Positions 4,707-48,500 of a stretch of DNA of 64,000 nt are shown piece by piece. Each line of letters opens with the position of its first letter. Position 1 is the stretch's first letter. Both the position numbers and the translations under genes were made by a program. This DNA comes from a virus: positions 1-64,000 of IMG/VR virus record IMGVR_UViG_3300035698_004448; one strand, 5' to 3'. The notes below the pieces were generated by a model that worked only from the letters and a program-made list of their open reading frames with translations, did not search any database and had not been told where the DNA came from.

Positions 4707-4818
4707 CATCAATAAAAAGCCTGAGATTACGGTTAAAAGGATTCAAAGGTTCTTAGGTTTTCGGTAAAGTATGAATTATTACCTGTTAGTGTGTAGTTTT
4801 GGTCTGATAGGAGTTCTT

Positions 4819-7228: not shown

Positions 7229-7246
7229 CCCAGGAGAGATAAACAA

Positions 7247-7278
7247 AAGAAGAAGGAGTCCTTTAATGGATGAACGAT
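7247..7278 (+). repeat. 32-bp direct repeat, right copy
   Basis: Matches 6704-6735 at 31 of 32 bases and contains the functional ribosome site and start codon (7266) of the following gene. Its position fixes the start of that gene. Confidence 0.85.
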
Positions 7279-9194: not shown

Positions 9195-9195
9195 A

Positions 9196-13893: not shown

Positions 13894-14937
13894 ATGACCG
13901 ATGAAACGAAACCAGAAGAAGCAAAACCAGCAGTTAAACCCGTCCCAGTTCCTCTAGGCATCGGGCTCGATATCGGAACTATGAATATTGTTGCTGCCCG
14001 TCGTGGGGGGAATGGCATTCAATCCAAACGGATGCGGGATGTATTCATCAGTTTACCTCTGACAGCCAAGAAGATGTTGAAATTGTCTGATACCAGCTTT
14101 GTTGAGCGGGAAGATGACGTTTTGATTCTAGGAGACGCAGCTCTGGAAATGGCTAATGTTTTTGGCTCTCAACCTCGACGACCACTTTCAGAAGGAATCA
14201 TTTCAGCTAGTGAAGTGGATAGTCTGGAGATTCTCGGATTACTTATCAAGAATGTTCTGGGAGAACCCCGAACAGAAAAAGAGCATTGTTACTTTTCTGT
14301 TCCGGCAGTTCCAGTTGATTCTGATAGAGATGTTATCTATCACCGAGGAGTTTTTGAACGTATTGTTTCAGAGTGTGGTTATACCCCTCATGCAGCCAAT
14401 GAGGCTATGGGGATCGTATACTCTGAGACAGCTAAAGAAGGATTCTCTGGGATCGGTATCTCCTTCGGCTCAGGGATGACCAACGTGGCCTTGTCCATCA
14501 ATACTATTGAAGGTTTGACGTTCTCTGTGTCACGAGGCGGTGATTGGATTGATATCGGTGCAGCCGGCTCTGTAGGTCAAACACAAGCTCGGATATGTGC
14601 CTTGAAAGAAAAGGGTTTTGATTTAACTAAACCTATGGGTCGGGAACAAGAAGCTTTGGCATTCTATTATAAATCGGCCATTGATTATGCTTTGGATAAG
14701 ATTGAAGAACGGTTCAAGTCTATTCAGAATCAATTCTCTCTGTCTAAGCCTATTCCTATTGTGATTTCTGGTGGTACAAGTAAAGCTGGTGGCTTCATGG
14801 ATTTCTTTACCGAAGTTTTTGAGAAACGTCGGAAGAAGTTCCCTATTGAAGTTTCTGAGTTACGACATGCCAAAGAACCCCTAAATGCTGTAGCTTACGG
14901 GCTGCTGATTCAAGCTATCCAAGAACACGAGGATTAA
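13894..14937 (+). CDS. Actin-like ATPase (MreB/ParM/Hsp70 superfamily)
   Basis: A 347-aa protein with ribosome site AAGGAG. The actin-fold motifs occur in order: phosphate-1 G-L-D26-I-G28-T at residues 22-30, a connect-1-like AANEAMG near 167, phosphate-2 GIGISFGSGMTNV at 186-198, and the adenosine motif VISGGTSKAGG at 290-300. An acidic, Pro/Lys-rich tail of about 18 residues precedes the fold. Such proteins bind ATP and usually polymerise into filaments that position DNA or other cargo; phage examples such as AlpC are known. Length fits a single actin fold. The neighbour one base downstream is an RKHL-motif protein, so they are probably co-translated. Whether it polymerises, and whether it is virion-associated, cannot be told from sequence. 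Confidence 0.85.
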   Translation: MTDETKPEEAKPAVKPVPVPLGIGLDIGTMNIVAARRGGNGIQSKRMRDVFISLPLTAKKMLKLSDTSFVEREDDVLILGDAALEMANVFGSQPRRPLSEGIISASEVDSLEILGLLIKNVLGEPRTEKEHCYFSVPAVPVDSDRDVIYHRGVFERIVSECGYTPHAANEAMGIVYSETAKEGFSGIGISFGSGMTNVALSINTIEGLTFSVSRGGDWIDIGAAGSVGQTQARICALKEKGFDLTKPMGREQEALAFYYKSAIDYALDKIEERFKSIQNQFSLSKPIPIVISGGTSKAGGFMDFFTEVFEKRRKKFPIEVSELRHAKEPLNAVAYGLLIQAIQEHED

Positions 14938-14938
14938 G

Positions 14939-15271
14939 ATGGAAGACTTAAAGTTGTGTGGTGCTCTACAAAAGATAGCAGACGAGAACCCTGAAACTAG
15001 GAAACATCTGATTCCTATTATCAAACAAGCTGCAAAGAAAACTATGAAGGTAACGGAACTCCCCCCGAAGGAACGAAAGATTGCCGAAAAGAAAATGGCC
15101 AAAGGTTATAAATACATATGTCAGTTTACTACGATTGACGGTGATTTAGATCCGATGTATTTCAAATCTCCAAATGAGATTGGACCTTTTAGGCGTCAGT
15201 ATCAGAAGGACCACGGCACAACAAAAATAAAGTGGACTTTCAGATTAGAACCTGCAAAAGGTAAGAAATAA
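14939..15271 (+). CDS. Protein with N-terminal RKHL motif, next to actin-like gene
   Basis: A 110-aa protein that begins one base after the actin-like stop. Residues 6-31 are the sixth motif copy (LQKIADENPETRKHLIPII, then KQAA). A Lys-rich linker and an alpha/beta segment follow: KGYKYICQFTTIDGDLDPMYFKSPNEIGPFRRQYQ...KIKWTFRLEP. This is the most diverged motif copy and the only one outside the 4819-9672 cluster. Being coupled to the filament protein, it may bind it or share its destination, which is inference. Confidence 0.7.
   Translation: MEDLKLCGALQKIADENPETRKHLIPIIKQAAKKTMKVTELPPKERKIAEKKMAKGYKYICQFTTIDGDLDPMYFKSPNEIGPFRRQYQKDHGTTKIKWTFRLEPAKGKK
14954..15031 (+). repeat. Shared-peptide motif, copy 6 (N-terminal)
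   Basis: Residues 6-31 of the host protein; core QKIADENPETRKHLIPII, then KQAA. Diverged at DNA level from copies 1-5 but with the N-P-E-x-R-K-H-L-x-P pattern intact. Confidence 0.8.
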
Positions 15272-15272
15272 G

Positions 15273-15455
15273 ATGACTGATATGGATGCACAAGCAGCTT
15301 TAGAGTATTTATCTACACCTAAAGGGCAAGCTGAATTAAAAGCTGCTTTTGAACGAGGTCGGGAAGAAGCTGACCGTATCAAGGAAGCTGTAAAGATGGG
15401 TCTTGATAGTTTAAGAGTCCCTTTTGGACCCAAACATGGGTGGGGTTTACGATGA
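15273..15455 (+). CDS. Small helical protein
   Basis: A 60-aa protein that begins one base after the preceding stop. Residues 4-45 are a charged helix (DAQAALEYLSTPKGQAELKAAFERGREEADRIKEAVKMGL), followed by a short RVPFGPKHGWGLR tail. The stop overlaps the next ATG (ATGA). The tight junctions on both sides support a real gene. No family recognised. Confidence 0.6.
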   Translation: MTDMDAQAALEYLSTPKGQAELKAAFERGREEADRIKEAVKMGLDSLRVPFGPKHGWGLR

Positions 15456-15817
15456 AGTCATCTAATGAAAACGGGTATCCTGTTATAACACCTGTACCCA
15501 CAGTCAAGGATCATTTCGAACACCTAGCTAGTGTATTTACAGATATAGAAAAGACTGATGTTAAGGTAACGAATGTTGTGATGACACCAGGGTTCTGGGT
15601 AAGTCTGAAAAAAGCCAAACATTACAAGGACTCTTGTGATTTGGGTAGTAGTGGTGGAGGTCACATTGGATATGTCTGGGGTTCTAAGATATGGCTTTCT
15701 GAGGTGGTTGCTGGTGGTGAAGTTGTTGCTTATGGAGAAGATGATCCGAACTTCTTAAAAGATTGGCCTGCCTTTGCTAATTGGGGTTTTAACTGGGGTT
15801 CTAATTTAAAGGATTAA
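15452..15817 (+). CDS. Capsid A-domain-like small protein, paralogue 1
   Basis: A 121-aa protein starting at the ATGA overlap; a GTG 12 bases upstream is possible but less likely. The centre reads KVTNVVMTPGFWVSLKKAKHYKD, then Gly-rich loop, then GHIGYVWGSKIWLSEVV. In HK97-fold capsid proteins the A-domain shows the same order: strand with N-P-x-x-[WF]-x-x-[LI] and helix, then a late G-x-x-[WY]-G-x-x-[VI]-[WV]-[VL]-S strand. Two further genes at 15821 and 16568 share this order and the D-x-P-x-F ending. A role as capsid-associated protein is inference; the protein is too short to be a complete HK97-fold capsid protein (about 300 aa). Confidence 0.65.
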   Translation: MKSSNENGYPVITPVPTVKDHFEHLASVFTDIEKTDVKVTNVVMTPGFWVSLKKAKHYKDSCDLGSSGGGHIGYVWGSKIWLSEVVAGGEVVAYGEDDPNFLKDWPAFANWGFNWGSNLKD

Positions 15818-15820
15818 ATA

Positions 15821-16276
15821 ATGAGTGGAGCTCTCACAAATAGTCATCCTTTTGTAGAGGAAGAACAACGGATTGAGGATATCCCGTCTTTCGGGATACC
15901 TACACAAGAATCTTTTTATGAACTGCCCGAAGGTGTTGTAGCTACTTGTGTTTTATTGAGTTTTGAAGATCCTTTTGAGGTTTTAGCTAAGTTGTTTGAT
16001 TTTATAGAGAAAACAGGCCAGTCAGTAAAGCATGTGGTAATAAATCATCAAACTTGGATAAGTATGTTGAAGGCTCAACAAAGTATACGAAATATAATGA
16101 GTTTAGTTAATATAGGACTTAGCGGTTATGTGGGGTGTTTGTGGAGTGTTCATGTCTGGGTTTCCCCAAGTGTCTCTAAAGATAAGTGTCACGGGTATAG
16201 TGAGTATGCTACTGAGGAATTTAAGGGTGCATACCCACAGTGTATTGAATACTTTAATAAAAACTTGAAAGATTAG
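15821..16276 (+). CDS. Capsid A-domain-like small protein, paralogue 2
   Basis: A 151-aa protein, paralogous to its neighbour. An N-terminal acidic stretch of about 45 residues precedes FEVLAKLFDFIEKTGQSVKHVVINHQTWISMLK and then the GYVGCLWSVHVWVSPSVS strand, corresponding to GYVWGSKIWLSEVV of the previous gene. The C-terminus ends NKNLKD, close to the SNLKD end of paralogue 1. A perfect 7-bp inverted repeat (15880-15886 / 15892-15898) lies inside the coding region. Probably arose by tandem duplication followed by strong divergence. Function unknown. Confidence 0.65.
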   Translation: MSGALTNSHPFVEEEQRIEDIPSFGIPTQESFYELPEGVVATCVLLSFEDPFEVLAKLFDFIEKTGQSVKHVVINHQTWISMLKAQQSIRNIMSLVNIGLSGYVGCLWSVHVWVSPSVSKDKCHGYSEYATEEFKGAYPQCIEYFNKNLKD

Positions 16277-16567: not shown

Positions 16568-16975
16568 ATGGAATTTAAAAGTTTAGAAGAAATCAAAAAA
16601 GTCATTCCTGTCCCCACAAAAGAAGATGTTATAAGTAAATTGGTCGAAACGGAACACGACCTGCTGGCAGGGAAGAAGTTTGCAAGTCAAGTAGCTGATC
16701 TTTTTTCTGAGGTGGAAAAAAAGAATGGTGATAGAGTTGCAAATGTGGTTTTTAATGCCCTTACTTTTCAGGATTTTCGTAAAGCTGATCCTTACTTAAT
16801 GGATATTGAATCTCAAGCAACGAGATTAAAAAATGGTTTGGTTGGGACATTGTGGGGAGCAAACGTCTGGGTTGCTGGAAAAGATAACCCTAAAGCATAT
16901 GAAGAAAATGGTTCTGATTTTGCTAAGGATTATCCTGCCTTTAATCAGTTCCAGCAACAAATAGGTTTAAAATAA
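16568..16975 (+). CDS. Capsid A-domain-like small protein, paralogue 3
   Basis: A 135-aa protein with leader AAAGGATTAGATTATG, duplicated from the 16280 gene. Contains ADLFSEVEKKNGDRVANVVFNALTFQDFRKADPY followed by GLVGTLWGANVWVAGKDNP and an ending ...FAKDYPAFNQF that mirrors FLKDWPAFANW in paralogue 1. The G-x-L-W-G-x-x-V-W-V strand is the clearest of the three copies and closest to HK97-fold A-domain ends. The TAA stop is in frame with the next gene and the reading frame stays open up to its annotated ATG. Confidence 0.65.
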   Translation: MEFKSLEEIKKVIPVPTKEDVISKLVETEHDLLAGKKFASQVADLFSEVEKKNGDRVANVVFNALTFQDFRKADPYLMDIESQATRLKNGLVGTLWGANVWVAGKDNPKAYEENGSDFAKDYPAFNQFQQQIGLK

Positions 16976-18701: not shown

Positions 18702-18879
18702 TTACTAGGCCACAAAGGCCGTGGAAAATACATACCGACCGAAACACCGACCTATCTTTTGAGCTTTAAAACCGCCGTTGGCTGGAGAGACAGACGAATG
18801 AACCGATAAACGAACGATTCAATTTGAGCTGAAACTCCGCAACGACTTTGTGGAAGAAACTAAAACAAGAGGTGTTCAA
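18702..18879 (+). other. Sheath leader region
   Basis: A 178-bp gap without a gene. It contains the 8-mer TTTGAGCT twice (18758-18765 and 18823-18830), also present in the leader at 30572-30579, and several GACCGA-like repeats. No TTGACA/TATAAT pair was seen; a phage-specific late promoter is possible. The ribosome site for the sheath is AGAGGTG at 18868-18874. Confidence 0.4.
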
Positions 18880-21800
18880 ATGGCATTTCCAGGTAAATCT
18901 TATGCTCCTCCGGGAGTTTACACTCAAACATTCTTCGAGAACCCTGTTTCTGGTGCTATCGACAGTTTCAAGATTCCAATTTTTATTGGTGAAGGAAACG
19001 AATTTCTGACACAGCAGAACTTGGAACTTGTCCGAGGTTCGTCCCAAAACGTCGATCAGAAAATCGTCGGTGAAGACGAAGCTGGACGAGCTGTAGTTGC
19101 TATTACCGCAGCTGGTGTTGTAGCCTTGGGTGACTTTGATGGGACTTTGGATAAAATCCAAGTTCGTAAATACCCCATCGTTGATGGTGAAGGTGTTGGA
19201 GCTGCTTCAAACAGCCGTTCGGATGTGATTGTTACCATTAACAACCAGATTACGGTTGTACGGCAGGTAACGGGAGCCACTGGTATTATTCAGTTAGCTC
19301 AAGCACCCTCAGCAACGGATGAAGTTCGAGTAACATACTTCTTCAAACGAACAGATACTCTGGTAACAGATGATGTTAGTGACCAGGTTAATCCTGATCC
19401 TGCAATCGTTCGTAGTGTAATAGGTCTTGCCGATGCAGATTCTCCTGTAGGCCAAGAAGGTTCTGTTGGAGCCTATGCTGTTATAGATTTACACGGTGAT
19501 ATTACCAATGCTTCTGGTCAAGTTATCGTTCCGGCCAACAACATTCTGAACTTGACCATTGATGGTGTGAAATATACTATCACCTTGGCTCCAAGAACAG
19601 ATTATACGATGGAGCAGATTGCTGCTGCCATCACAGCAGCCGGTAAAGGAACTCTGACAGCCAGTGCTTTCATTAATAATTTCGGTCTTTCTGCTTTATT
19701 GTTGAATGCCGATGGAAGCATCGTAGTGAATGCCGGGGCAGCAAATGCACCATTAGGACTCATAACAGGTTCTGCCGATACCCGAACAATAACCTTCTAT
19801 ACCTTCCAAGGTCCCATCGTTGATGGTTCCAATGGTGGTGTGACGACAACCGACTCTGCTAAAGTGGTGGTCAAAGTTAATAACATTCAGGTTATCCCGA
19901 CAGCAGTGAACGGTTCTACTCGGGCAGTTACTTTAGCCTCAGCTCCAAAAGCTGGTGCAACCGTAACCATCCAATACTGGTTCAACGCCTGGCAGGATAC
20001 ATTTGATTACCTGCAACATAACAGTGTAACTGAGATTACCAGTTGTGGTGTAGCTCCTAATTCCCAGTCTTACATCCAAGATGCTGACTTCGTGCTTAAA
20101 GATGACAAGATCGTCTGGGGTACAGCAGCTCTGATTTCCAGTGGTGTTCATACTACTGGGGCTACGTTATTTGGGGACACTCAGATTACGGCAACCTTGA
20201 TTGACAACAAAACCTTCCTTTCGGCTTGTACCCCAGTTGTACAAAGTAGTGGTGGAATCTCTACTGATAACCGAATGGAGTTTTCCTTGGCTTTCCAGCC
20301 GACTCTTGGTAATGGACGTAACACCCCCTTGGGTCAGAGTCTATTCCAAACAGTTTCCAACGGACGAATTGATATCCCAACCAACCGCCCTGACGTGGTG
20401 GATGTGTATTGGGGTTATGATATCCAAGATGCTCTCGACAGAGGCAAAGTTGATGTTGACAAAGTGGACGGAATTGTCGTCACTTTGGCTGAGGCCGTTC
20501 CTGCTGGAGCTTCTGTATTTGCTTCGTTCTGGTATAACCTTCTGACAGACAATGAATTCACCGCTGAGTGTGTAAACCCCGGAGCTTCCGGTGTTGGTAC
20601 TTACACCATCATTGACAACGGTGACAACGATGTCTACGGAGCTACTTTCAATACCGGTTCAAAGGGAACTTCCTTGAACGGTGTGACTCTTGAATTCCCA
20701 TCAGGCTCAGAACTGACTCCTGATCTTCGTTTTGAAGGCTTGTCAGGTGATGATTTTGTAGGTCCAATCGAAGAAATCGTTACAGTACAGTTTGCATCTC
20801 GTGTGGCTACTCCTGCTAAATGGACGATGCCTGGTTCTGGTCCTTATGAGTTCATCAATGGATACTCGGATCATCTCCGAATCAAACTACATGCTGCCGA
20901 TGCTACACCCGCAACAGGTCTGGATTTGGATAATCCTTCCGGACATGATGGTGGGTTCTTTGCTACCTTGATCGGTAGTGAGGTAGATTACACTGGCGGA
21001 TCTGGTGCAACCATTGGTCAAAGTTATTCTTTGGCAGCTGCCGAGGACTTCTACTTGCAGGTTGATGATGCTAACATCTTGGTTAAAACCTCTGCTACAG
21101 TATCTAATGTTGATGTCAGTTATTTTGCTGACGTTATCAATGAAGCTGCTAGTGGGCAACAAGGTCTGGCCGTAGTCGGTGGTGGTTTAAGTAACATCAT
21201 ATTGCCTTCTACCGTTTCTGATATTACCTCCGACGTGAACAACTACTATGTTGGTTGGAGAGTGGTTATCGGTACTCACGCTCTCGGTGGTGCAAGTTCT
21301 GGTCAGTTCCGAACTATCACAGCTTATAATGGAGCAACTTCCACAGCTACAGTAGATGCAGCATGGACTGGTGGTGCTACTGTAGTAAATACTCCTTATT
21401 ACCTTTACAACCCAGATGCACGATCTACAATGGTTGGTGCAACTGAGTTTAATGGTCCTGTAACAATCACATTAGGCGGTCATGACAAACTGAACTTTGC
21501 CTTTAGAGGTGATGTAGAATCAATAGCCTTTGAAATTACCTTAGACCCAGGCACTTATGCTACTCCAGTTCTTTTGGCTGCCGAAGTCCAAACTCAGATT
21601 GATGCTGCACTTACACCCGGAGCAACTGGTGCAAGTGTCGAGTGTACAGCTAATGCTGCTGCCAAGTTGCAGTTTAAACTACAACTTCCAGGTTTGAATA
21701 GTGTTAGTTACTTGCAATTCTTGAACTCCTCTGGCTCCCCAGACGATGATTTTGCAATCCTAGCAGGTTTGGACACAGCCGCATCTTTTGGTGGTGGTCA

Positions 21801-24195
21801 AGCAGCTTTGATTCAAGGTCCTATTGCTCGGTCTTATGTCTGCCCATCTGGTACAGGAGATCGTAAACTCTATGACCGCCTTGTCCTTCGTAACAGATTG
21901 TTACCTGGTGGCGGACCAAGCAGCAGCATGGATGCTCATGATATTGAAGCTCAAACTGCTCTCCAAGTTCTTACTGGTAATACAAAAGCTGGTTTAGTAT
22001 CAGGTGTGTACGGAGAAGCTGCTCGATCAGCAACCGTTCGTCCTGCTACAGTATTTGGTGATGTCGGCCTCACAGGTGATATGGATACCGATGGTGAACC
22101 TCTGGTCACGTTCTACGATGGCACAGGAACACAAGCTGCAAATGACACCTTTAAGTTCGATGTAGATGGAACTCCTGTTGAAGTAGCCTTTGATTCTTCA
22201 GCTACTGGAGTAACGACAATTACTCCTTTAGGACCAATCTCGGATGACACTTCAATCTTGGGTCAGATCAAAGTGGCTATGGCTGCTGTCCCCGGAACTC
22301 CTTTCGGAACTGCTGCTAACATTGTTAGCACCCTAATCCTTCGTCAAGAAGGTGCTGGTATCCGTCTGACAGGTCTTGAATCCAGCAGCACTGCCAAGTT
22401 GTCTATTGGTAGCAGTAGTGCTAATGGTGTCTTAGGGTTCTCGTCCGGTGCAACTTCTCTCCGTGAGACTGTTTCCGTGAGAACCTTGGCTTCAGCTTTG
22501 ATGGCTAACCGAAACAGTAACTTTACAAACTGGCTGATAGATATTGATGCTACTACAGCTTTAACCTTTTCCCTTTATGGTTTGGCTGGTGTTGAAGAAG
22601 ATAGTGTTGGTGCAGAATTCTTGTACTTGCAAGATGCTCCTTCACTCATAGCTGAGTTAGGAACTCAATCCTCGATTGAGATCAAGAATACAACCGGCCT
22701 GATTGATGATGCTTTGGCTTATCATACTGGTCTAAGTGCTAAAGATGGTGACGGAGCTTCGGGTGAACCTGCTCTTGATGGTTTCTTCGTGAAATCAAGT
22801 GTGAGTGGTGGATCTGGTTCCGTTGATGAATCTCTCCTGAACCCCGCTGCTGATGGAACAGGTCAAGATGGTATCGTTGGTCAAACTTACCGAGATGAAG
22901 TAAGTGGCTTAACTTTCACTCTCCTGCCTCGTGGTTGGAGTACTGATCCAAACGGTCCTTGGCTCCAATACCCAACGGGTGTAAATGCTACTTTCCGTAT
23001 CCAATGTGGTAAATCCTTCACAACGGATGCTAACATACCTCATAACTCTGTCAATGGTGTCGAGCTGATTGTAGCTAATACCGTCGGAGTAACAACTGAG
23101 GATACAGCTCTGGTAGAAACCTTCGAGCGTGGTGGTGAAGAACCTTCAATAGGTGACTTGTACTACACCTCTTATGTGTACCAGAAACAAGACTTCAATA
23201 CGGGATTCTTTAGCAAGATGTCCTCCATTGAAGAAGCCTACGGTACAATCTCGACCGACAATCCTTTGTCTATGGCTTCTGATCTGGCTATCATGAATGG
23301 TGCTGTCCTCTTAGGGCTGAAACAAGTCCCAAGAGAAACTGGTGAGTCATATGCCAGCTTGACGACCTACAGAGATGCCATCAAAGATTTGGAAGGCACA
23401 TTGCCAGGTTACATTAATCCTGACATTATCTGCCCGCTTCGTGGAGACTCAACGGACCTGTATCAATACTTGAAACAGTCCAACGAACTGATGTCCTCTA
23501 TCCGATACAAGTCCGAACGGACTTCCATTGTCGGTATGTCGGCAGGAAGCTTACCAGAAGATGCTGGTGATTTGGCTCAGACCTTGGGCAACACCCGTAT
23601 GCGTTTGGTTTATCCTGACATGGCTATCGTTTCAATCACGGATGCTTTGGGTACCAGTCGAGATGAGCTGATGGATGGTCCGATGTTGGCAGCAATGCTT
23701 ATTGGTTCTGTCATTAGCCCGAACCTTGATGTGGCAACTCCTTGGACTGGCCGACGTTTGGTTGGTGTCCGACAACTGGGACGTATCTTAGATGCCCCTC
23801 AACAGAACTTGTTGGCTACTAAAGGTGTCACGATTCTGGAAGATAAACCTCCGTTCATCAGAGTACGTCACGGTTTGACTACTGACATGACGAACGTGTT
23901 GACCAAGTTGCCGACCATCATCATGATTGCAGATGAAGTCCAACGTCAGTCAAGACAACTTCTGGAGAACTTCGTAGGTATCAAGTTCTTGCCCGGCGTC
24001 CTCTCACAAGTTGAAGGCCGTATGGCAATGCTCTTGAAACAGATGGTGAATGCCAAGATCATAACAGCCTACACAGGTGTTAAGGCAACAACGGCAGCTG
24101 ACGACCCTACCGTAGGTGAAGTGTCTGCTTACTACAGCCCAGTATTCCCACTGTTATACTTGGTCTTAACCTTCCACCTCCGTTCCAGCTTGTAA
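18880..24195 (+). CDS. Contractile tail sheath protein, greatly enlarged
   Basis: A 1,771-aa protein from ATG 18880, which has GAGGTG six bases upstream; an ATG-free upstream extension is ignored. The N-terminus (MAFPGKSYAPPGVYTQTFFEN...IPIFIGEG) is the classic sheath opening. The last about 400 residues (GYINPDIICPLRG, VISPNLDVATPWTGRRLVGVRQLGRILD, TLTKLP-type strands, ENFVGIKFLPGVLSQVEGRM) form the conserved C-terminal sheath domain with its late beta-hairpin arms. Usual phage sheaths are 400-700 aa; about 1,000 extra residues lie between. The insertion contains repeated beta domains: copies of GxVxLAxAPxxGxxVxVxYW near residues 113-170, 326-380 and 505-565, and hook-IN-like LGL/LGF domains near 221-307, 856-970 and 1087-1192. 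These would project from the outer tail surface. It forms the contracting outer tail tube. Confidence 0.9.
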   Translation: MAFPGKSYAPPGVYTQTFFENPVSGAIDSFKIPIFIGEGNEFLTQQNLELVRGSSQNVDQKIVGEDEAGRAVVAITAAGVVALGDFDGTLDKIQVRKYPIVDGEGVGAASNSRSDVIVTINNQITVVRQVTGATGIIQLAQAPSATDEVRVTYFFKRTDTLVTDDVSDQVNPDPAIVRSVIGLADADSPVGQEGSVGAYAVIDLHGDITNASGQVIVPANNILNLTIDGVKYTITLAPRTDYTMEQIAAAITAAGKGTLTASAFINNFGLSALLLNADGSIVVNAGAANAPLGLITGSADTRTITFYTFQGPIVDGSNGGVTTTDSAKVVVKVNNIQVIPTAVNGSTRAVTLASAPKAGATVTIQYWFNAWQDTFDYLQHNSVTEITSCGVAPNSQSYIQDADFVLKDDKIVWGTAALISSGVHTTGATLFGDTQITATLIDNKTFLSACTPVVQSSGGISTDNRMEFSLAFQPTLGNGRNTPLGQSLFQTVSNGRIDIPTNRPDVVDVYWGYDIQDALDRGKVDVDKVDGIVVTLAEAVPAGASVFASFWYNLLTDNEFTAECVNPGASGVGTYTIIDNGDNDVYGATFNTGSKGTSLNGVTLEFPSGSELTPDLRFEGLSGDDFVGPIEEIVTVQFASRVATPAKWTMPGSGPYEFINGYSDHLRIKLHAADATPATGLDLDNPSGHDGGFFATLIGSEVDYTGGSGATIGQSYSLAAAEDFYLQVDDANILVKTSATVSNVDVSYFADVINEAASGQQGLAVVGGGLSNIILPSTVSDITSDVNNYYVGWRVVIGTHALGGASSGQFRTITAYNGATSTATVDAAWTGGATVVNTPYYLYNPDARSTMVGATEFNGPVTITLGGHDKLNFAFRGDVESIAFEITLDPGTYATPVLLAAEVQTQIDAALTPGATGASVECTANAAAKLQFKLQLPGLNSVSYLQFLNSSGSPDDDFAILAGLDTAASFGGGQAALIQGPIARSYVCPSGTGDRKLYDRLVLRNRLLPGGGPSSSMDAHDIEAQTALQVLTGNTKAGLVSGVYGEAARSATVRPATVFGDVGLTGDMDTDGEPLVTFYDGTGTQAANDTFKFDVDGTPVEVAFDSSATGVTTITPLGPISDDTSILGQIKVAMAAVPGTPFGTAANIVSTLILRQEGAGIRLTGLESSSTAKLSIGSSSANGVLGFSSGATSLRETVSVRTLASALMANRNSNFTNWLIDIDATTALTFSLYGLAGVEEDSVGAEFLYLQDAPSLIAELGTQSSIEIKNTTGLIDDALAYHTGLSAKDGDGASGEPALDGFFVKSSVSGGSGSVDESLLNPAADGTGQDGIVGQTYRDEVSGLTFTLLPRGWSTDPNGPWLQYPTGVNATFRIQCGKSFTTDANIPHNSVNGVELIVANTVGVTTEDTALVETFERGGEEPSIGDLYYTSYVYQKQDFNTGFFSKMSSIEEAYGTISTDNPLSMASDLAIMNGAVLLGLKQVPRETGESYASLTTYRDAIKDLEGTLPGYINPDIICPLRGDSTDLYQYLKQSNELMSSIRYKSERTSIVGMSAGSLPEDAGDLAQTLGNTRMRLVYPDMAIVSITDALGTSRDELMDGPMLAAMLIGSVISPNLDVATPWTGRRLVGVRQLGRILDAPQQNLLATKGVTILEDKPPFIRVRHGLTTDMTNVLTKLPTIIMIADEVQRQSRQLLENFVGIKFLPGVLSQVEGRMAMLLKQMVNAKIITAYTGVKATTAADDPTVGEVSAYYSPVFPLLYLVLTFHLRSSL

Positions 24196-24913: not shown

Positions 24914-26437
24914 TTAACGTCTAATACTACGGAAACCACCAGCTCGTTCGGCATCAGCAATGACTTCTTGTACCAGTTTCAGATGTTCTTTGAGTCGGTA
25001 TTCGAGATCTCTGAGGGCTATCTCCTCGTAGGAGTCTGAGCTTCCTTGGCCTAAATACCATAGTGTTTTTTGCGTTTTCAAACTCAAGGGTAAGATGAGT
25101 TGTGTAGGCATGTCTTCAAACTGTTTAGATTTCTTACCAGGGGTAACAACTTTAACAGCAGGGGCAAAGGTTATCGGGGCTTTGACATCCGGGGCTGAGG
25201 TAAAGGTTATTGGAAAAGAAGTTAGTGGCATAACAACTGGTTTGGGTTTCATTTTCTTCGGAGCAACATCAAGGGCTTCCAAATCTTTCAGAATGGCATC
25301 AACATCAATACTTTCGGTAACAGATGCAACTTCTTGGTCAGAAATAGGTTCTTGATACGGGACAGCTACCCCGTTTGGTTCGTCAAGTTTTATAGGGTCA
25401 GGTTGTGTTATTTTTTTATAACACAACCCTATTTCTTCTTTAGAAGGCATTAGTAAATCAGACAATTCTTCTTTTCTAAGCCATACTAAGAATCGTTTTA
25501 CTGATGTATAGATAGAATGCATTGTTGATTCGGCATAATCCGGGGAGATGTGTGTAAAAAAGTTCTGGACTGATTCTTTAGTAATATCTTCGGGTTTCGT
25601 TTTCTTACCGACAACGTCTGCAAAATCCTGAATGTGGTTCCCGTGGCTTTTTTGGTGAGTTTTACTTGCACGTTTGATTTTGGGGGGGAGATCTTTCAGA
25701 TGTTGTTTTACCGCTGTTTTTAAAGTTTTGGTCAAATTGTCCTCCTTCACCCCATTATCTGTAGGGGTTGCTAGTATTTCTGGGAATTCTAATGGGTTAA
25801 GGTCACTTGTTTTCGGGATGAGGTTTGAAACATATTCGTATTTTTTAGCACCTTCCATACCTGTATCTTTTATTTTGAGAGAACCTTCAGCCAAAAGTTG
25901 GTCAATCCCTTTTTTGGCATCGGTTTTTGAAACTTGGAAAAAATCCATAACATCCTTTAATGTTGGATATTGAGGATATTTATTGCCAGAGTGAGCCTGT
26001 TGATAACAGTACCGCATGTAATTCCGAACGATACTTTTTTGCCAGTCGTTTTTAAAGTTGGGAGTAAAGGGATCAATACTAGCATACCCACCAAAACATA
26101 CTTTTTCAATATGCTCTCTTAATAGGAAACTTGGTTGATATCTAATGACACCAACACCATGTGTTATGTCAAGAAAACCTTTTTGAGTTAAAGACTCCAG
26201 ATATTCTTCTACAGACCCTGTTCTTAATTCTTTAATACGAATAGGGCGGTTCCAATTTTTATTTGCATACTTGGGATCTCTTAAAAACCCTTTCTGAAAA
26301 GCCTCGTTTTTCTTTTCTTTTTCTTTTTTCAAAAAAGAACAGATTTCTACATCTGTCCAGTGGCCGTGAAAGCCATCACCAGCTTGAAGCATAACTTTGA
26401 AAAGTTCAAATCCGTGTCTGTTTATAACTTTTAACAT
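24914..26437 (-). CDS. Winged-helix protein with recombinase core-binding-like region
   Basis: A 507-aa protein and the only convincing minus-strand gene. Two winged-helix-like regions are visible: residues about 1-110 (helix, VEEYLESLTQKGFLDITHGVGVIRY wing) and about 150-195 (PTLKDVMDFFQVSKTDAKKGIDQLLAEGSLKI). Residues about 265-340 (IQDFADVVGKKTKPEDITKESVQNFF, YAESTMHSIYTSVKRFLVWLRKEELSDLL) resemble the SAM-like core-binding domain of tyrosine recombinases, but no R-H-R-Y catalytic domain follows; instead there is a long Pro/Val-rich linker and a C-terminal helix. Ribosome site AAAGGA precedes the ATG. It may bind DNA as a regulator or plasmid-type initiator. AT-rich and oppositely oriented, both signs of acquisition. 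Confidence 0.7.
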   Translation of the reverse strand: MLKVINRHGFELFKVMLQAGDGFHGHWTDVEICSFLKKEKEKKNEAFQKGFLRDPKYANKNWNRPIRIKELRTGSVEEYLESLTQKGFLDITHGVGVIRYQPSFLLREHIEKVCFGGYASIDPFTPNFKNDWQKSIVRNYMRYCYQQAHSGNKYPQYPTLKDVMDFFQVSKTDAKKGIDQLLAEGSLKIKDTGMEGAKKYEYVSNLIPKTSDLNPLEFPEILATPTDNGVKEDNLTKTLKTAVKQHLKDLPPKIKRASKTHQKSHGNHIQDFADVVGKKTKPEDITKESVQNFFTHISPDYAESTMHSIYTSVKRFLVWLRKEELSDLLMPSKEEIGLCYKKITQPDPIKLDEPNGVAVPYQEPISDQEVASVTESIDVDAILKDLEALDVAPKKMKPKPVVMPLTSFPITFTSAPDVKAPITFAPAVKVVTPGKKSKQFEDMPTQLILPLSLKTQKTLWYLGQGSSDSYEEIALRDLEYRLKEHLKLVQEVIADAERAGGFRSIRR

Positions 26438-26507: not shown

Positions 26508-26535
26508 TTGACAGTGGCATTTTGATGGGTATAAT
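26508..26535 (+). promoter_or_regulatory. Strong sigma70-type promoter for the MerR-VWA operon
   Basis: TTGACA (26508-26513) and TATAAT (26530-26535) with a 16-bp spacer, both perfect consensus, 24 bp before the start of the MerR-like gene. It diverges from the minus-strand gene, forming a regulatory intergenic region of about 120 bp. Confidence 0.8.
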
Positions 26536-26559
26536 AAGAAGCATGAAAGGAGTATGCCG

Positions 26560-26949
26560 ATGAAATATACTATGAGTGAGTTAGCGGAAAGATCCGGGGT
26601 GACAGCCAGAACGATCCGCTACTGGATTGGAGAGGGTCTCCTGAAAGGTCCTTTGGGTGGTAAAGGGCATGGAGCCTATTACACTGACGACCATTTGAAG
26701 CGTCTCCAAACTATTCAAGAAATGAAAAATGGCCAAGGAGATCAGGAAGGGATGACTTTGAGGGATATCAAGTCTACTCAAGATGGTTGCAGTAATCTTG
26801 AGTTCAAAGTTACTCGTCCGACACACATTTGCCCTATGGATGGGGTAGACCTAATAATTGCTGAGAATATTCCGTTACATTACCGACGTGCTTTTATCCA
26901 AGCTATAGTTAATGTAGCCAATTCTATTACAAACAGACGAAGGAGTTAA
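26560..26949 (+). CDS. MerR-family-like transcriptional regulator
   Basis: A 129-aa protein. An in-frame ATG six bases earlier is too close to the AAAGGAG ribosome site, so 26560 is preferred. Residues 3-55 are a MerR-type winged helix: YTMSELAERSGVTARTIRYWIGEGLLKGP, then GAYYTDDHLKRLQTIQEMK. The second half (FKVTRPTHICPMDGVDLIIAEN) lacks the long dimerisation helix of classic MerR proteins and is a short effector-like region with one Cys. It lies directly downstream of a consensus promoter and 3 bp before the VIT-VWA gene, so it probably controls that operon by binding the same intergenic region. Confidence 0.85.
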   Translation: MKYTMSELAERSGVTARTIRYWIGEGLLKGPLGGKGHGAYYTDDHLKRLQTIQEMKNGQGDQEGMTLRDIKSTQDGCSNLEFKVTRPTHICPMDGVDLIIAENIPLHYRRAFIQAIVNVANSITNRRRS

Positions 26950-26952
26950 GAG

Positions 26953-29463
26953 ATGAATCCATTTAATAATGAAGAAGAACCCAGAGGAAACGTCCTCATT
27001 GAAGCAGGGTCTGGTTTAGCCGTCCCCCTTACTATGCAGAGGATGGATTTAGCTGGTCGAGTAACTCCTGCAGGAGCAATGCTCAGAGTAACCCATCAAT
27101 TCAAGACTGAGAGTGATGGTCCGATTGAAGCTATCTATACATTTATGTTGCCCCGGAACGGTACGCTCAGACGATTCATCGTCAAGGGTGAGGATTTCGA
27201 GGTTGAATCTAAACTGGAAGTTCGTAAAGAAGCAAGAGCTAAATACGAAGAAGGTGTTGAAGCAGGCCATCTGTCCGTTTTGGCAGAAGCTAACCCTGAT
27301 GGTATGGTCTCCTTGTCCGTTGGTCAAGTACAACCGGATGAGTTGATAACGGTTGTGATGGATATCATATCTGGTGTGGAACTCAAGGATAATACTTACA
27401 GATTCCGATTCCCGTTCACTTTAGCTCCCAGTTATCATGCTAGAGCTACAACTTCTTCGACAGGGAAAATGCAACTACCGACAGATGTATTTGGTGATCT
27501 TATTTTACCTGAGTGGAAGGATGATGCCAGCGGTCTTCATCAGGTATCGTTCACGATGAATGTTGAAGCAGCCGGTAAATTAGATTGCGTCTCCTCACCA
27601 TCTCATCGTATTCAAGTCAGACCAAATGGAGAAGGTTCTGTTGAAATCAAATTGTCAAGTGCCGGAGATATTCCGAACCGTGACTTGGTTATTGATGTGC
27701 AGGCTAAAGAAGTTGAAGCCTCTGTATTTGCCGATACTAAGCTCGTCTCCAAGAAGACCAGTAAAGATGATCCCAAGATTCCGAAGGATGCTCCCCGATG
27801 GGCAGCTCTTGTCCCATCGAGCCTGATTCCGAAGATGAAGACAACCCCCAGAAGAGTTTGTTTCGTCTTGGATGATTCCGGTTCAATGAGTGGAGCACCT
27901 ATCAAGCAGGGAAGATTAGCTCTCCGAGCCTGTTTGTCAGCTCTTAGGCCGACAGATGAGTTTGGTCTGATGTATTTCGGATCAAATTACACCAAGTTTG
28001 ATGACAACATGGCCAAGGCCACCGATGCCAACCGGAAACGGGCAGATAAATTCATCGATCCGATTGGTGCTAGTAGTGGTGGGACAGAACTGGCTGCGGC
28101 TCTTGGAGCAGCTATAAGTATTCTGGATGGTTCTGGTGGGGATATTTTCCTGATGACCGATGGCCAAGTGTTTGAGTCCAGTACCATTATTGAACAATGT
28201 GCTGCTGCTGGGACACGAGTTCACGTTCTGGGTATTGGATCAGCCAGTCAAGATAGATTCCTTGCAAGTCTTGCTCGTCGAACAAATGGTCAGCAGGGGA
28301 TGGTTGGAGTGACCGAAGATATTACTTCTAAAGCATTGGGACTTTTCAATGCTGTCAGGCAACCTGTCCAGACCAATCTGAAAGCTTATGTTGTTACAGG
28401 TAAGAAAATGGCTCAGGAGCATGAAGTAGATGTTATCTGGGACGGTTATCCTATTTTGCTGACGGATGACGGTACAACCGGTCTGAACGCCCCCACAGCT
28501 ATATCTTTTACATGGGGCAAAGGGAAACAAGCCAAGAAGGTCAAAGTTCCTATGAATTACATCCAAGAAGTTCCGAATGGTCTTTCTTGTCTTCTGTATG
28601 CAGGTCGTCAGGTTGAAGATCTGGAGAATGCTATAGATGCCGCTCTGAAAGATAGCCCTGCCAGAAAAAATTCAGAAATTATGCTGAAGGCTGTTTCAAC
28701 GACTTACGGGCTGGCTAGTCAAGTGATGTCCCTGATTGCCGTTGTAAAACGAGCAGGGGATCAAGCTGGACAGCAACCGGAACAGAGAGTTGTGGCCGTG
28801 GGTACTCCTGAAGGAATGGCTAACCGCCAAAATAGTAGGGGTATGCTCCGTGGGATGCTCGTTGATTCTTGTAGTGTGATGCTCGTTGATTCTTGTAGTG
28901 TGAGTGGAGGAAGCAGTACCCGTTATGGATCTTCACCATCGGTTAATTATTGTGCTCAGACCCTCGGATTTATGGATGGTGAGCCTGAGAGAAGTACACA
29001 ACCACTAGGTTTCAGAACTAGAACCAAGAGCTCTAGCTTATCAAGTTCGATAACTAAGGATCTTGAGAATCTTAATGATTCCATTACTGCTTATAGTGCA
29101 GATGAGGATTACGGTTTGGTTTGTTATATAGTCAAACTTCAATCTGATGGTGGTTTACCAGGCCTTACTCGGAAGAAACGTGCCCATGAGACGGCTATTC
29201 TGGCTTTGGCTGCTCATATGGAAGATCAGGGCAGTGATTCTCCGAGCTACAGCCTCCATATAGAGAGGATGCTGGAATTCTTGAACCATTACCTTGACCT
29301 GAATGCTGGTAAAGACCCAAACATGGCTCTTTTGGTTGGGATTATTGAAGCAGGTCAGACTGCTTTAAATGAGGATTGCAGACAGATTCTCTGTAATAGT
29401 CCAATGTCAGGTGACTCTGAAATAAACTGGGCTCACCTATCAGGTGCTTTATCCAGCCTCTAA
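26953..29463 (+). CDS. VIT and von Willebrand factor A domain protein
   Basis: An 836-aa protein with ribosome site AAGGAG. Residues about 13-150 form a VIT (inter-alpha-trypsin inhibitor) domain: VTHQFKTESDGPIEAIYTFMLPRNGTLRRFIV, then ARAKYEEGVEAGHLSVLAE. Residues about 298-470 form a VWA domain with a complete metal site: D307-x-S309-x-S311, T378 and D403. The C-terminal 250 residues are less conserved and include a tandem MLVDSCSV repeat. No signal peptide. VIT-VWA proteins use the metal site to bind protein ligands; in phages such domains have been reported in baseplates. Together with the MerR-like regulator it forms an operon with its own promoter and terminator. It might be virion-bound or a host-modifying factor; sequence does not decide. 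Confidence 0.9.
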   Translation: MNPFNNEEEPRGNVLIEAGSGLAVPLTMQRMDLAGRVTPAGAMLRVTHQFKTESDGPIEAIYTFMLPRNGTLRRFIVKGEDFEVESKLEVRKEARAKYEEGVEAGHLSVLAEANPDGMVSLSVGQVQPDELITVVMDIISGVELKDNTYRFRFPFTLAPSYHARATTSSTGKMQLPTDVFGDLILPEWKDDASGLHQVSFTMNVEAAGKLDCVSSPSHRIQVRPNGEGSVEIKLSSAGDIPNRDLVIDVQAKEVEASVFADTKLVSKKTSKDDPKIPKDAPRWAALVPSSLIPKMKTTPRRVCFVLDDSGSMSGAPIKQGRLALRACLSALRPTDEFGLMYFGSNYTKFDDNMAKATDANRKRADKFIDPIGASSGGTELAAALGAAISILDGSGGDIFLMTDGQVFESSTIIEQCAAAGTRVHVLGIGSASQDRFLASLARRTNGQQGMVGVTEDITSKALGLFNAVRQPVQTNLKAYVVTGKKMAQEHEVDVIWDGYPILLTDDGTTGLNAPTAISFTWGKGKQAKKVKVPMNYIQEVPNGLSCLLYAGRQVEDLENAIDAALKDSPARKNSEIMLKAVSTTYGLASQVMSLIAVVKRAGDQAGQQPEQRVVAVGTPEGMANRQNSRGMLRGMLVDSCSVMLVDSCSVSGGSSTRYGSSPSVNYCAQTLGFMDGEPERSTQPLGFRTRTKSSSLSSSITKDLENLNDSITAYSADEDYGLVCYIVKLQSDGGLPGLTRKKRAHETAILALAAHMEDQGSDSPSYSLHIERMLEFLNHYLDLNAGKDPNMALLVGIIEAGQTALNEDCRQILCNSPMSGDSEINWAHLSGALSSL
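28855..28902 (+). repeat. Perfect 24-bp tandem duplication in the VWA gene
   Basis: Bases 28855-28878 and 28879-28902 are identical and encode MLVDSCSV twice. It keeps the frame and introduces two Cys residues. The perfect identity suggests a recent duplication. Confidence 0.95.
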
Positions 29464-29485: not shown

Positions 29486-29520
29486 AAAGGAGTGTTCTCT
29501 CACGAGGGCACTCCTTTTTT
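29486..29520 (+). terminator. Rho-independent terminator of the island
   Basis: AAAGGAGTG (29486-29494) pairs with CACTCCTTT (29509-29517), followed by TTT and a further T-rich stretch. It ends the MerR-VWA operon before the tail-tube gene. Confidence 0.9.
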
Positions 29521-29640
29521 CCATTTTTGGGTTTCGTTATATTGCTTATATTGCCCGTAAGAGTGAGGGTTAGAAATTTATGACTCTCCCTTCACCTGTT
29601 AAATAGGTGTGGATCGAAACCGTAGATGGAGGTCTTTATA
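29521..29640 (+). other. Tube-gene leader
   Basis: No gene. Contains the perfect tandem 9-mer TTATATTGC (29537-29545 and 29546-29554), a possible promoter element, a small hairpin CACCT/AGGTG near 29593-29609 and the ribosome site GGAGG at 29628-29632. Confidence 0.4.
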
Positions 29641-30477
29641 ATGCCGAATCTTGATAACAACACAGCAAACACCGGAGTAGGTGGAACATCGTATATGTAC
29701 GATTACGGGACAAGCCCGAACACCAGAACTGCGGTTAGCCAGAAAGTTCGTATTCTGACACCTCATGTTGGAAATACAACTACGATGGCTCAGATGGGTG
29801 TGCTGTCTCAATTTAACCCCTCACAAAGCAGAACTGTTGAGCCTGTACGTGGTATAGGTTTCGGGGACAAGGTTTCCGAGCTGGTACCTTCCGTAACAGA
29901 ACCGACAACTGGTAACTTTGAACGAGCACTCTTATACCTGTGTAACTTGTGGCAAGCCACTGGTTATGCTTCTGGTGTAGATGGCCCTGTTCGTTCCTTA
30001 GCTCATCACAAATGGCCTTTCGATGTTGAACAGCAAGTCGTGTTCAGTTCATTGGCTGATGAGGATCTAGGCGTTGCAAACATAGGTACTGGAAATGATG
30101 CCGGTACTTTCGATGGTGGTGTTAGCCAAGTCAATTACGGCAAGGTTACTCCAAATGAGAGCGTTACTGTTCCTGGTAATGGCGATCAAGGACATTCAGC
30201 CATCATTACAGTATACGAAGCCTGCTGGTTCAATAGCTGGTCAACCACTTTTGCCAAAGACTCTGGCCTTATTATGGAATCTGGTGATGTGACCGTTACT
30301 GACGTACATGACTTTGCTTCTATCTATGGTGAGTTCATGGCTACTGGTAATGACCCAACGGTCGGACAACTTGGTTCCATTCGATATGCCGAATCAGGCT
30401 TCGATGTAGCCGGTGTTGGAGGCCGAGTAAACGTAGGTGGTGAAGGCCAAGGACTCGTAGCTTTACAACAACCATAA
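29641..30477 (+). CDS. Probable tail tube protein
   Basis: A 278-aa protein. ATG at 29641 follows GGAGG by 8 bases, whereas an in-frame ATG at 29626 would place the ribosome site inside the gene. The sequence is beta-rich with Gly/Asn/Thr loops (TYMYDYGTSPNTRTAV, GFGDKVSELVPSVTEPTTGNFERALLYLCNLWQATGYASG, VTVTDVHDFASIYGEFMATG). Recognition as tube rests on size and position: it comes after the sheath (across the island) and before two chaperone-position genes and the tape measure. The tube lies inside the sheath and carries DNA. It could be another tail protein. Confidence 0.6.
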   Translation: MPNLDNNTANTGVGGTSYMYDYGTSPNTRTAVSQKVRILTPHVGNTTTMAQMGVLSQFNPSQSRTVEPVRGIGFGDKVSELVPSVTEPTTGNFERALLYLCNLWQATGYASGVDGPVRSLAHHKWPFDVEQQVVFSSLADEDLGVANIGTGNDAGTFDGGVSQVNYGKVTPNESVTVPGNGDQGHSAIITVYEACWFNSWSTTFAKDSGLIMESGDVTVTDVHDFASIYGEFMATGNDPTVGQLGSIRYAESGFDVAGVGGRVNVGGEGQGLVALQQP

Positions 30478-45576: not shown

Positions 45577-48500
45577 ATGAGTTTCCAATTTGACGGAAAA
45601 GTATTAGAAGGTGTACGGCAATCCCCAGTGAATGCTGCCACCACAGATGAACCTGGAACGGCAGTTATCCAAGATATCCGACCTCTGCCCCAAACTTTTG
45701 AATTAGATGCCCCGGATTTGGTGTCTGTAGCTGCCGATCAGTATCGGGTAGCTGCTTTGGACACCCCTGGTTCAACCGTTATGGAGTATTTAGTTTGGGC
45801 ACAGAATTCAGCTCAGTTAGCAACTGTTGATAACCCTGATTGGTGGACAGATGGTGGCACTGGTGAGGTACCTACTGGAGATTTAGATGTTATTGCTTAC
45901 CCTGCTACAGTTGATGAGGTTACACATACTGACGGGACGGCTAATGTTGTCATCGAGGATGAAGGAAATCGGAGCATTGGGTCTATTTTATGGCTCGTAG
46001 TTGCTCGTGGTGACGTGGAATACGATGATGACGGTTGGGTAGACTCCGATGATCCTACACAAGGCAGAGAAGGAGATAACCCTTACCTTTTCTGGCAGAT
46101 TAATACTGCAAATCAGAACCCTGTATCTGGGATGGTTACTCTGACTCCTGCTCAATTAGTTCTTTTGGATGGAGGTCTTTCCATTGAACGTGGTGATAGG
46201 ATTGTCAAAGTTGGATACACAGTAGCTCCCCCGAGGTTCTGGTGGACTCGTAACGACCGGTATGAACAGCGTTTCGGATGGAACGGTTCAACCCAGCGGT
46301 GGGAACCTTGGAAAGGTTCTGGGGTCAAAGAGTTGGGGTATCTTCTTTTAGATGAAGCCTCTTTCACGTTGAGTCCAAAAATCCAAAACCTCCCAGTTGG
46401 AGCAATTCTTCCGGGTGATGGCACACCTTCAGGTGCTGATAAATACTCAATGATCCGACTCGGTTCTGATCCCGGAGTAAATTCAACTCCGGCAGCTCCA
46501 AGTGATGAGTGGGCAGGCATTATGGTTAAACTTGATGATGCCGTTGAGGATTTCGATTTCAGTCAAGCCGGCACTCTGATTGCCGTTATGGGTCAGACCA
46601 ATGGAAAACTGGTATTTAACCCGGCTTATGTGCTGCTTAATGCCGGAAATAAGATATGGTACTCATACAAGAGTTTTAATGCTGATGAGGATGGTGTCAT
46701 AGGGAGCATTCAAGATGCTCGAACAGATGATTTGTATCTGGCTCCATTGCCTGGTCCAACTGATGCTCCACTCCTTCGGTACGGCAATCGGACGTACCTT
46801 GATGCCGTGACGTTCAATACTGACGGTGAGATGGATGCCGCTGGTGATCCTGACGAGGGTCAGATATATTTGTCCTTATCAACTGGACGGTTGGTACTTA
46901 GTTACGTTGATCTCGGTAAAGTTGATCCTGATAATACTGCTACATTTTCTAAATACTATTTTGGAAACAAAGTGGTCTACGATGGAGTAGCTCTCTGTCA
47001 ACGTCCTCAGCCGACAAAATCTCCTGTTCGTTTAGTAAATGCAGCAGGGAATCTCACAATAGATGCCTCTGATGCATACCTCCCAGATTCAGAAACATTA
47101 CCGGACAGTTATAATCCTTCTGATTGGAACGATGCTTATAGAGGTTTGGGTGTCTCTGGGATATTACAAGTTCCCGATGAGTTGGGTGCTTTACCCCAAC
47201 TCCCAACTGGGGGTAGAGAAGTCCCAGTTCGACCAGGTGGTGATAACTATGATGATGGAACTAAAGACCCGAACATTGGGATGGTGAGAGCATTAAAAGA
47301 TACCGTAAGTGATACTATCATCTTTGGTAGGGATTATGCTGTTGCCGAAGTCATCCCTTACAGAATCCCAGATGACAAACCTTCAAAGATTCGTAGCCCA
47401 CAGGCTTACGTCTGTCTTCAAAAAGATCCTAGTGACCAAGGTTCTGAAGTTCAATTTAGCCATACAGATGCCCATCGATTGAGTGGTGATTATATTTATT
47501 TTCTCCAAGCAGCTCTGACTCCTGCTATTTTTTCAATAGAAGCTAAGATTTATTCCCGGAACAGAGACATCTTCCGTTTCGATGGAGATGAGATTTTTTA
47601 TTTTAATGTGGATTCAGCAGATTATAGCTGGGACCCAGTTGCTTTGATGGCAGCTAATCCTGATAATACCTATTTCACGGCAGAGGAAGTAGCCGAGGAT
47701 ATGGCTACGGGTGCTCCTGTAACCGCTATGAATGGTCGGATTATTATCACTGGGGCGGTCTCGGTTGAGATTGGTTTCGGTGGGACTGATAAAGACCTCT
47801 CCGGTGCTACAGCCTTGGGATTCCTCCCCGGTTGGAAAGCTGTTGAGGGTGTCTCTTGTTGGTTACCTGATTCTGGGGTTAGTGTAGGTTTATCTCGAAG
47901 TCCTGTTAATCTGGATAAATCGAAATCAACCTGTGATTTTTCTTATGTCGGGCGTGTCCAAGATGGTATTTTGAGTGATGGCTTACAGCCGAATCCTTAT
48001 TTCTTTTTCATCAATGCACCCTTACAAGATATTGCTGGGTACGATGACAATCTATTCTTCCGCTTGATAAGTTATATCGTTGATGGAGATGCTGTTAGAG
48101 TCGTCTTTAAGACTTTAGATCATTACAAGGACATCATCTATCGGTTCGGCCAGAAGAAGTTTGATTGGGTTGCTGAAGATTCTTATGTCCAACCTGTCGA
48201 GCAGGCTCTTAACACCCTGACATTAGGGAATGTTGGGGTTGTCCCCGAAGCTATGGTCGGAGCTCCTGGGATTGGTGGTGGTCTGTATGTGAATTCTGGG
48301 GAAGGTGGTTTTGTTCTTCAAGCTCAGGATGACGATTATATCCTACCGTTTGAGGGTGCCCCCGGAAATGCAACATTGATTCATCGGTTTGGTAGAAGAG
48401 TTCAGTTTGGTGCTCAAGGATCGTTCTCCGCCGGATCAGATCAATTTATAGATAACACCGTAGACTTCACAGACCCTGAAAAGGAAGTGCTTTCAGGTTA

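What the first reader, a model, noticed from the sequence alone, without database searches (positions are those of the whole stretch)
26953..29463. VIT-VWA protein with intact metal site between sheath and tube genes
A VIT domain followed by a VWA domain with D307, S309, S311, T378 and D403 is a protein-binding architecture best known from animals and bacterial surface or signalling proteins. In a phage tail cluster it could be a host-binding or anti-defence factor, or a structural piece. It has no signal peptide.
Basis: partly seen in the sequence, partly recalled or inferred. Interest (0 to 1): 0.75.

Follow-up and report, generated by a model that had tools for sequence, protein, structure and literature searches.

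The report
Bacterial MerR/VIT-VWA operon in huge phages
A huge-phage tail gene cluster carries a small self-contained two-gene operon of bacterial type, a DNA-binding regulator plus a cytosolic VIT-VWA protein-binding protein of the kind known from animal ITIH and vault proteins, and it behaves as an optional passenger under its own promoter, not as a tail part.

Summary
In detail: window 26953-29463 encodes an 836-aa VIT + VWA protein with a complete MIDAS (D307, S309, S311, T378, D403), between a tail-sheath gene and a conserved tube-like gene of a huge phage. A MerR-type regulator (26554-26949) lies 3 bp upstream. All 17 distinct phage loci found have this pair. The pair has its own sigma70-type promoter: TTGACAGT occurs upstream of MerR in 13 of 17 loci (about 0.003 expected each) and once in the window; a terminator-like hairpin follows. 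The same pair exists in bacteria, and MerR-linked bacterial VIT-VWAs are the phage proteins' nearest relatives in a tree. It is not a constant tail part: relatives of 222-536 kb contain no VIT domain, a sister phage has lost it in a clean 3.6-kb deletion, and another carries a broken copy. dN/dS of 0.10-0.19 shows that intact copies are selected. Best reading: an anciently acquired, MerR-controlled accessory operon whose VIT-VWA product works in the host cytosol as a metal-dependent protein-binding adaptor, probably for host or defence modulation; that last step is inferred. No report of it was found in the open-access papers searched.

The parts
26953..29463 (+). VIT-VWA protein, 836 aa: VIT domain (about 29-135), hybrid beta region, VWA with MIDAS (about 301-470), disordered hypervariable linker (about 621-719), C-terminal helical domain (720-836)
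   Evidence: Pfam; AF2 model pLDDT 77.7 with disorder at 624-719; Foldseek top hit ITIH1 6fpy; dN/dS 0.10-0.19
26554..26949 (+). MerR-family HTH regulator, 131 aa, co-transcribed partner; C-terminal segment resembles that of the bacterial partner MerR proteins
   Evidence: PF13411 68.7 bits; paired with VIT-VWA in all 17 phage loci and in bacteria
26508..26535 (+). sigma70-type promoter TTGACA-16-TATAAT (12 of 12) containing the conserved TTGACAGT box, proposed MerR operator
   Evidence: 13 of 17 phage loci carry TTGACAGT within 120 bp upstream of MerR; only occurrence in the window
29486..29517 (+). intrinsic-terminator-like hairpin (14-pair stem, T-run) 23 bp after the VIT-VWA stop; 16-pair hairpins at the same place in L002 and L004
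18850..24195 (+). tail sheath, 1781 aa (upstream flank, not part of the module)
   Evidence: tblastn to annotated tail sheaths
29626..30477 (+). conserved tail protein, probable tube (downstream flank, not part of the module)
   Evidence: conserved in 31 viral loci; matches Tunturi_5 virion structural protein; tube identity inferred
24914..26437 (-). divergent DNA-binding protein with integrase SAM-like domain; accessory, not in all module-bearing phages
   Evidence: PF13495 28.4 bits; relatives in L002-L004, none found in L012, L053, L055

Best explanation
The feature is the effector half of a self-contained, autoregulated two-gene accessory operon (a moron). A MerR-family protein sits on the TTGACAGT box that overlaps the -35 element of its own sigma70-type promoter; the 16-18 bp spacer suggests ordinary repression, not the spacer-untwisting activation of classical MerR proteins. 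It thereby controls itself and a VIT-VWA protein that is often translationally coupled to it. The VIT-VWA protein stays in the host cytosol and binds one or more protein partners through its VIT and metal-dependent MIDAS surfaces, in the way of intracellular VIT-VWA proteins such as PARP4, VWA5A and Dictyostelium Vwa1. The operon was taken long ago from a bacterial MerR/VIT-VWA operon and parked in a variable site between sheath and tube-like genes of a huge-phage lineage, where it is kept by selection but can be lost. Shown: architecture, gene pair, conserved promoter box, kinship with bacterial operons by tree and gene order, dispensability, purifying selection. Inferred: direction of transfer, repression by MerR, cytosolic action, the metal actually bound, and that the partner is a host or defence protein.
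For: MerR is directly upstream (from a 4-bp overlap to a gap of about 40 bp) in all 17 distinct phage loci, and this MerR type was not detected in related tail loci without VIT-VWA. TTGACAGT lies upstream of MerR in 13 of 17 loci against about 0.003 expected per locus, and occurs once in the window, at a 12-of-12 promoter. A terminator-like hairpin follows. Bacteria carry the same pair (L041-L043). Among 121 VIT-VWAs, phage plus MerR-linked bacterial proteins and three others form one side of a branch with support 100, in two tree methods. Large relatives lack VIT altogether: 536, 485, 375, 312, 308, 296, 226 and 222 kb. L006 equals L005 minus 3.6 kb holding MerR, VIT-VWA and most of a PLD gene. 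L060/L062 carry a frameshifted, internally deleted copy. dN/dS is 0.10-0.19 overall. MIDAS is identical in all intact copies.
Against: No expression, binding or virion data. The two bacterial phyla sampled are not known to be the hosts. Phage VIT-VWAs sit on a long branch (1.5-2.2), so the exact bacterial donor is unresolved. A terminator was not found in every relative. The box in phages is often a direct repeat while some bacterial promoters show a palindrome, so the operator geometry is not settled. A dispensable virion decoration made from its own promoter is not excluded.
Confidence: 0.68

Rival explanations
1. It is a virion component: a decoration, chaperone or accessory tail protein made in the late programme and held by its place in the tail cluster.
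For: Always located upstream of the tube-like gene on the same strand where the contig shows it; MIDAS proteins can mediate adhesion; in several phages no terminator separates it from the tube-like gene.
Against: Absent from large relatives with the same tail genes; lost or broken in sisters whose flanking tail genes are intact; dedicated MerR and promoter; nearest relatives are bacterial operons, not phage genes; no matching PHROG tail family.
Confidence: 0.14
2. A more specific form of the best explanation: it is a counter-defence or takeover factor aimed at a particular host immune protein, the MIDAS binding an acidic residue of the target.
For: Two of about 13 bacterial relatives lie next to conflict genes: nSTAND1 (L196) and a sacsin/NO-VEIN protein plus Cas3 (L192). 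Phage accessory genes with their own promoters often have such roles (general knowledge). The linker evolves fast (dN/dS 0.36-0.74 where measurable).
Against: Two neighbours of 13 is weak and uncontrolled; VIT-VWA and its bacterial relative have no PADLOC match; no target is known.
Confidence: 0.3
3. It is a superinfection or phage-phage competition cassette, or a conversion gene benefiting the infected cell.
For: Autonomous regulated operon with patchy distribution at a variable site that elsewhere holds DNA-binding and transposase-like proteins.
Against: No direct evidence of exclusion; lysogeny of these phages was not tested.
Confidence: 0.15
4. It is a selfish or decaying passenger without function for the phage.
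For: Lost or broken in some phages.
Against: dN/dS 0.10-0.19 and full MIDAS conservation at about 45% median identity show sustained selection in most carriers.
Confidence: 0.05

Closest known systems
Bacterial MerR/VIT-VWA operon (seen here in Burkholderiales and Deltaproteobacteria MAGs and others)
   Same: Same gene order, adjacent or overlapping genes, related MerR with a similar C-terminal segment, TGACAGT-type boxes upstream in several, grouped together in the tree
   Different: Only 21-28% identical; the phage C-terminal helical domain is not detected in the bacterial proteins; found on bacterial contigs
Eukaryotic intracellular VIT-VWA proteins: PARP4 (vault), VWA5A/BCSC-1, Dictyostelium Vwa1 (PMC10539598)
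   Same: VIT followed by VWA with MIDAS, cytosolic; whole VIT-VWA span aligns with PARP4 (E 2e-37)
   Different: No PARP or MVP-binding domains seen; far lower identity; prokaryotic operon with a regulator
Inter-alpha-trypsin inhibitor heavy chains (ITIH1, ITIH4)
   Same: Best solved-structure match (6fpy, Foldseek E 1e-29)
   Different: Secreted, glycosaminoglycan-linked; the phage protein has no signal peptide
Marine proteobacterial sortase target protein (TIGR03788)
   Same: Best NCBIfam hit, 225 bits over residues 37-624
   Different: Far below its cut-off (551.65 bits), no signal peptide, MerR-linked instead
VIT-VWA-like proteins of giant eukaryotic viruses (Terrestrivirus, Fadolivirus, Tupanvirus)
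   Same: Only near-full-length viral structural matches in BFVD (E 1e-43 to 1e-35)
   Different: Viruses of eukaryotes; about 17% identity; likely a separate acquisition (inference)

Membership tests
VIT-VWA protein (ITIH / PARP4 / VWA5A architecture) | VIT domain above Pfam cut-off | tested here: met
   PF08487 49 bits against 26.5
VIT-VWA protein (ITIH / PARP4 / VWA5A architecture) | VWA domain with MIDAS DxSxS, T, D | tested here: met
   PF13768 60 bits; D307/S309/S311/T378/D403 invariant
VIT-VWA protein (ITIH / PARP4 / VWA5A architecture) | Metal-dependent ligand binding | not testable with these tools
   needs purified protein
Bacterial MerR/VIT-VWA operon | MerR directly upstream on the same strand | tested here: met
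   17 of 17 phage loci; about 15 bacterial loci besides L041-L043
Bacterial MerR/VIT-VWA operon | VIT-VWA groups with MerR-linked bacterial VIT-VWAs | tested here: met
   support 100 in FastTree and IQ-TREE quick
Bacterial MerR/VIT-VWA operon | MerR controls the operon promoter | not testable with these tools
   only the conserved box is shown
Marine sortase target protein TIGR03788 | Score above curated cut-off | tested here: not met
   225 against 551.65 bits
Marine sortase target protein TIGR03788 | Signal peptide and hydrophobic C-terminal anchor | tested here: not met
   no hydrophobic N-terminus or TM-like segment
MADS defence system (MerR hit PADLOC mad1) | Other MADS genes alongside | tested here: inconclusive
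   of the five proteins scanned (two VIT-VWAs, two MerRs, the divergent gene) only the MerRs hit mad1, 41.6-47.4 bits; read as generic HTH similarity; more distant neighbours were not scanned
Phage tail structural protein | Constant presence in phages with the same tail | tested here: not met
   absent from relatives of 222-536 kb
Phage tail structural protein | Present in virions | not testable with these tools
   needs proteomics

The most novel reading that the evidence does not exclude
MerR plus cytosolic VIT-VWA is an undescribed bacterial regulatory or conflict system in which the VIT-VWA protein senses a partner and signals to its MerR, and huge phages have captured it and turned it against, or in mimicry of, the host version.
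Probability: 0.2. Interest if true: 0.85.

Novelty: new variant of a known kind. Interest (0 to 1): 0.57.

Why it matters
VIT-VWA proteins are known mainly from animals, amoebae and secreted bacterial proteins, and what the intracellular ones do is largely open. A compact phage version with its own regulator and promoter, a bacterial counterpart and natural deletion sisters gives a tractable two-gene system for finding the partner. It also shows that the sheath-tube boundary of huge phages is a site for optional cargo, so position in a tail cluster is not evidence of a tail function.

Tried and rejected
INPHARED phages hold no relative of the protein. Single-sequence search of viral contigs found nothing; alignments were needed. 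MADS membership was set aside (only a mad1-like HTH). The sortase-target family was rejected by score and lack of signal peptide. Ubiquitin hits at residues 511-562 in the PDB search are treated as chance: PARP4 and ITIH alignments run through the same segment. The C-terminal helical domain profile found no bacterial relative. An AF2 model of the tube-like protein was too weak to use. TTGACAGT is not clearly enriched elsewhere in the phage records over a reversed-pattern control, so no wider regulon is claimed. Distances of VIT-VWA against MerR and tube correlate only weakly, so neither strict vertical descent nor repeated transfer is claimed. Paper searches for VIT with MerR or phage terms returned nothing relevant.

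Full report
Check of the observation. The ORF at 26953-29463 is intact and 836 aa long. They are identical in all 15 intact phage copies and eight bacterial relatives compared. An AF2 model (pLDDT 77.7) is confident over VIT, hybrid region and VWA, disordered at 624-719 and helical at 720-836. Its best solved match is ITIH1, and by sequence profile ITIH4 and PARP4. The only near-full-length viral matches in BFVD are proteins of giant eukaryotic viruses. No signal peptide or TM segment is seen.

Setting. The window is part of a 74.7-kb viral record. The sheath identity of 18850-24195 rests on matches to annotated sheaths in Tunturi_5, an acidobacterial jumbo phage (PMC11924767), and Bacillus phage G. 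The gene after VIT-VWA is strongly conserved in 31 other viral loci and matches a Tunturi_5 virion structural protein; that it is the tube is inferred.

The partner gene. A MerR-family gene (26554-26949) ends 3 bp before VIT-VWA. Further scans raised the set to 17 distinct phage loci with VIT-VWA (window, L002, L003, L004, L005, L012, L050, L051, L053, L054, L055, L060, L061, L203, L208, L209, L211). Each has MerR directly upstream and, where the contig reaches that far, the tube-like gene downstream. MerR stop and VIT-VWA start overlap by 4 bp in seven of 15 loci measured. In L002, L004 and L054 the MerR carries an N-terminal GIY-YIG-type (MUG113/T5orf172) domain (for L002 and L054; L004 by alignment).

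The promoter. Upstream of MerR in the window lies TTGACA-16-TATAAT, a perfect match. TTGACAGT occurs upstream of MerR in 13 of 17 loci; from its frequency in the same loci about 0.003 per locus is expected. It occurs once in the window, where shuffles give 3.5. Spacers are mostly 16-18 bp, which fits ordinary repression better than classical MerR activation (general knowledge of MerR promoters). Some bacterial promoters carry a related palindrome (L041, L187, L191). A 14-pair terminator-like hairpin follows VIT-VWA at 29486-29517, with similar hairpins in L002 and L004 but not in every relative.

Origin. Three bacterial MAG loci found by profile have the same pair. In a survey of 793 genomes of two phyla, the bacterial VIT-VWAs scoring highest against a profile of the phage and L041/L043 proteins nearly all have MerR directly upstream, whereas the large majority of other VIT-VWAs do not. 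L041 and L043 helped build that profile, so their own scores are inflated; the others were independent. In trees of 121 and 47 proteins, phage plus MerR-linked bacterial proteins and three others are separated from the rest with support 100, or in the second tree lie on both sides of the phage branch with the unlinked proteins set off by a branch of support 100; the phages form one group with support 100. For one of those three (L178) the contig starts too close to see upstream; for L156 and L172 no MerR was detected. The phage branch is long, so the donor is unresolved.

Dispensability and selection. Relatives of 222-536 kb with related tail genes contain no VIT domain. L005 and L006 are 74-91% identical in flanking DNA, but L006 lacks 3.6 kb that holds MerR, VIT-VWA and most of a PLD-like gene, whose 3' remnant remains, so this is a loss. 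L060 and L062 carry an internally deleted, frameshifted copy. On the tube tree presence changes at least six times, though few branches are well supported. Intact copies in the four closest phages have dN/dS of 0.10-0.19, with a fast linker (0.36-0.74 where measurable).

Mechanism. The evidence supports an autonomous accessory operon with a regulator and a cytosolic protein-binding effector. Repression of its own promoter by MerR, release by an unknown signal, and binding of a host protein through the MIDAS are inferred from what VIT-VWA proteins elsewhere do (PMC10539598). Conflict genes next to two bacterial copies (nSTAND1 in L196; sacsin/NO-VEIN and Cas3 in L192) hint at a role in host-phage conflict, but two of about 13 without a control is weak.

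Novelty. The architecture is known. The coupling to MerR and its presence in phages were not found in the open-access papers searched nor among annotated phages; subscription papers were not searchable.

Noticed in passing
window 4771-6195, 6773-7228, 7134-8384, 8397-9194, 9169-9672, 14939-15271: Six ORFs share a motif of the form LQxKxxKLANxNPExRKHLVPILKQA, near the N-terminus in some; possibly a targeting or cleavage tag. Not found in 13 other phage tail loci checked.
   Followed up: partly
window 13894-14937: 347-aa protein with GIGLDIGTMNIV near its start resembles actin/ParM/FtsA-type ATPases by eye, inside the structural cluster; not tested.
   Followed up: no
window 15440-15817, 15821-16276, 16568-16975: Three short neighbouring ORFs look like tandem paralogues by eye.
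   Followed up: no
window 3444-4706 and 6359-6730: A homing endonuclease-like protein (PHROGs) and a GIY-YIG-like ORF (by eye), suggesting mobile DNA near the structural genes.
   Followed up: no
L005:9076-9474: PLD-like gene directly after VIT-VWA in L005 and L060; its 3' remnant survives in L006 next to the deletion.
   Followed up: partly
L002:6681-7367, L004:6572-7300, L054:7249-7974: MerR fused to an N-terminal GIY-YIG-type (MUG113/T5orf172) domain.
   Followed up: partly
L192:11246-18211 and L196:577-3312: Bacterial MerR/VIT-VWA operons flanked by sacsin/NO-VEIN plus Cas3, and by an nSTAND1 protein.
   Followed up: partly
window 45577-57192: A 3871-aa ORF in the tail cluster with no PHROGs match.
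   Followed up: no
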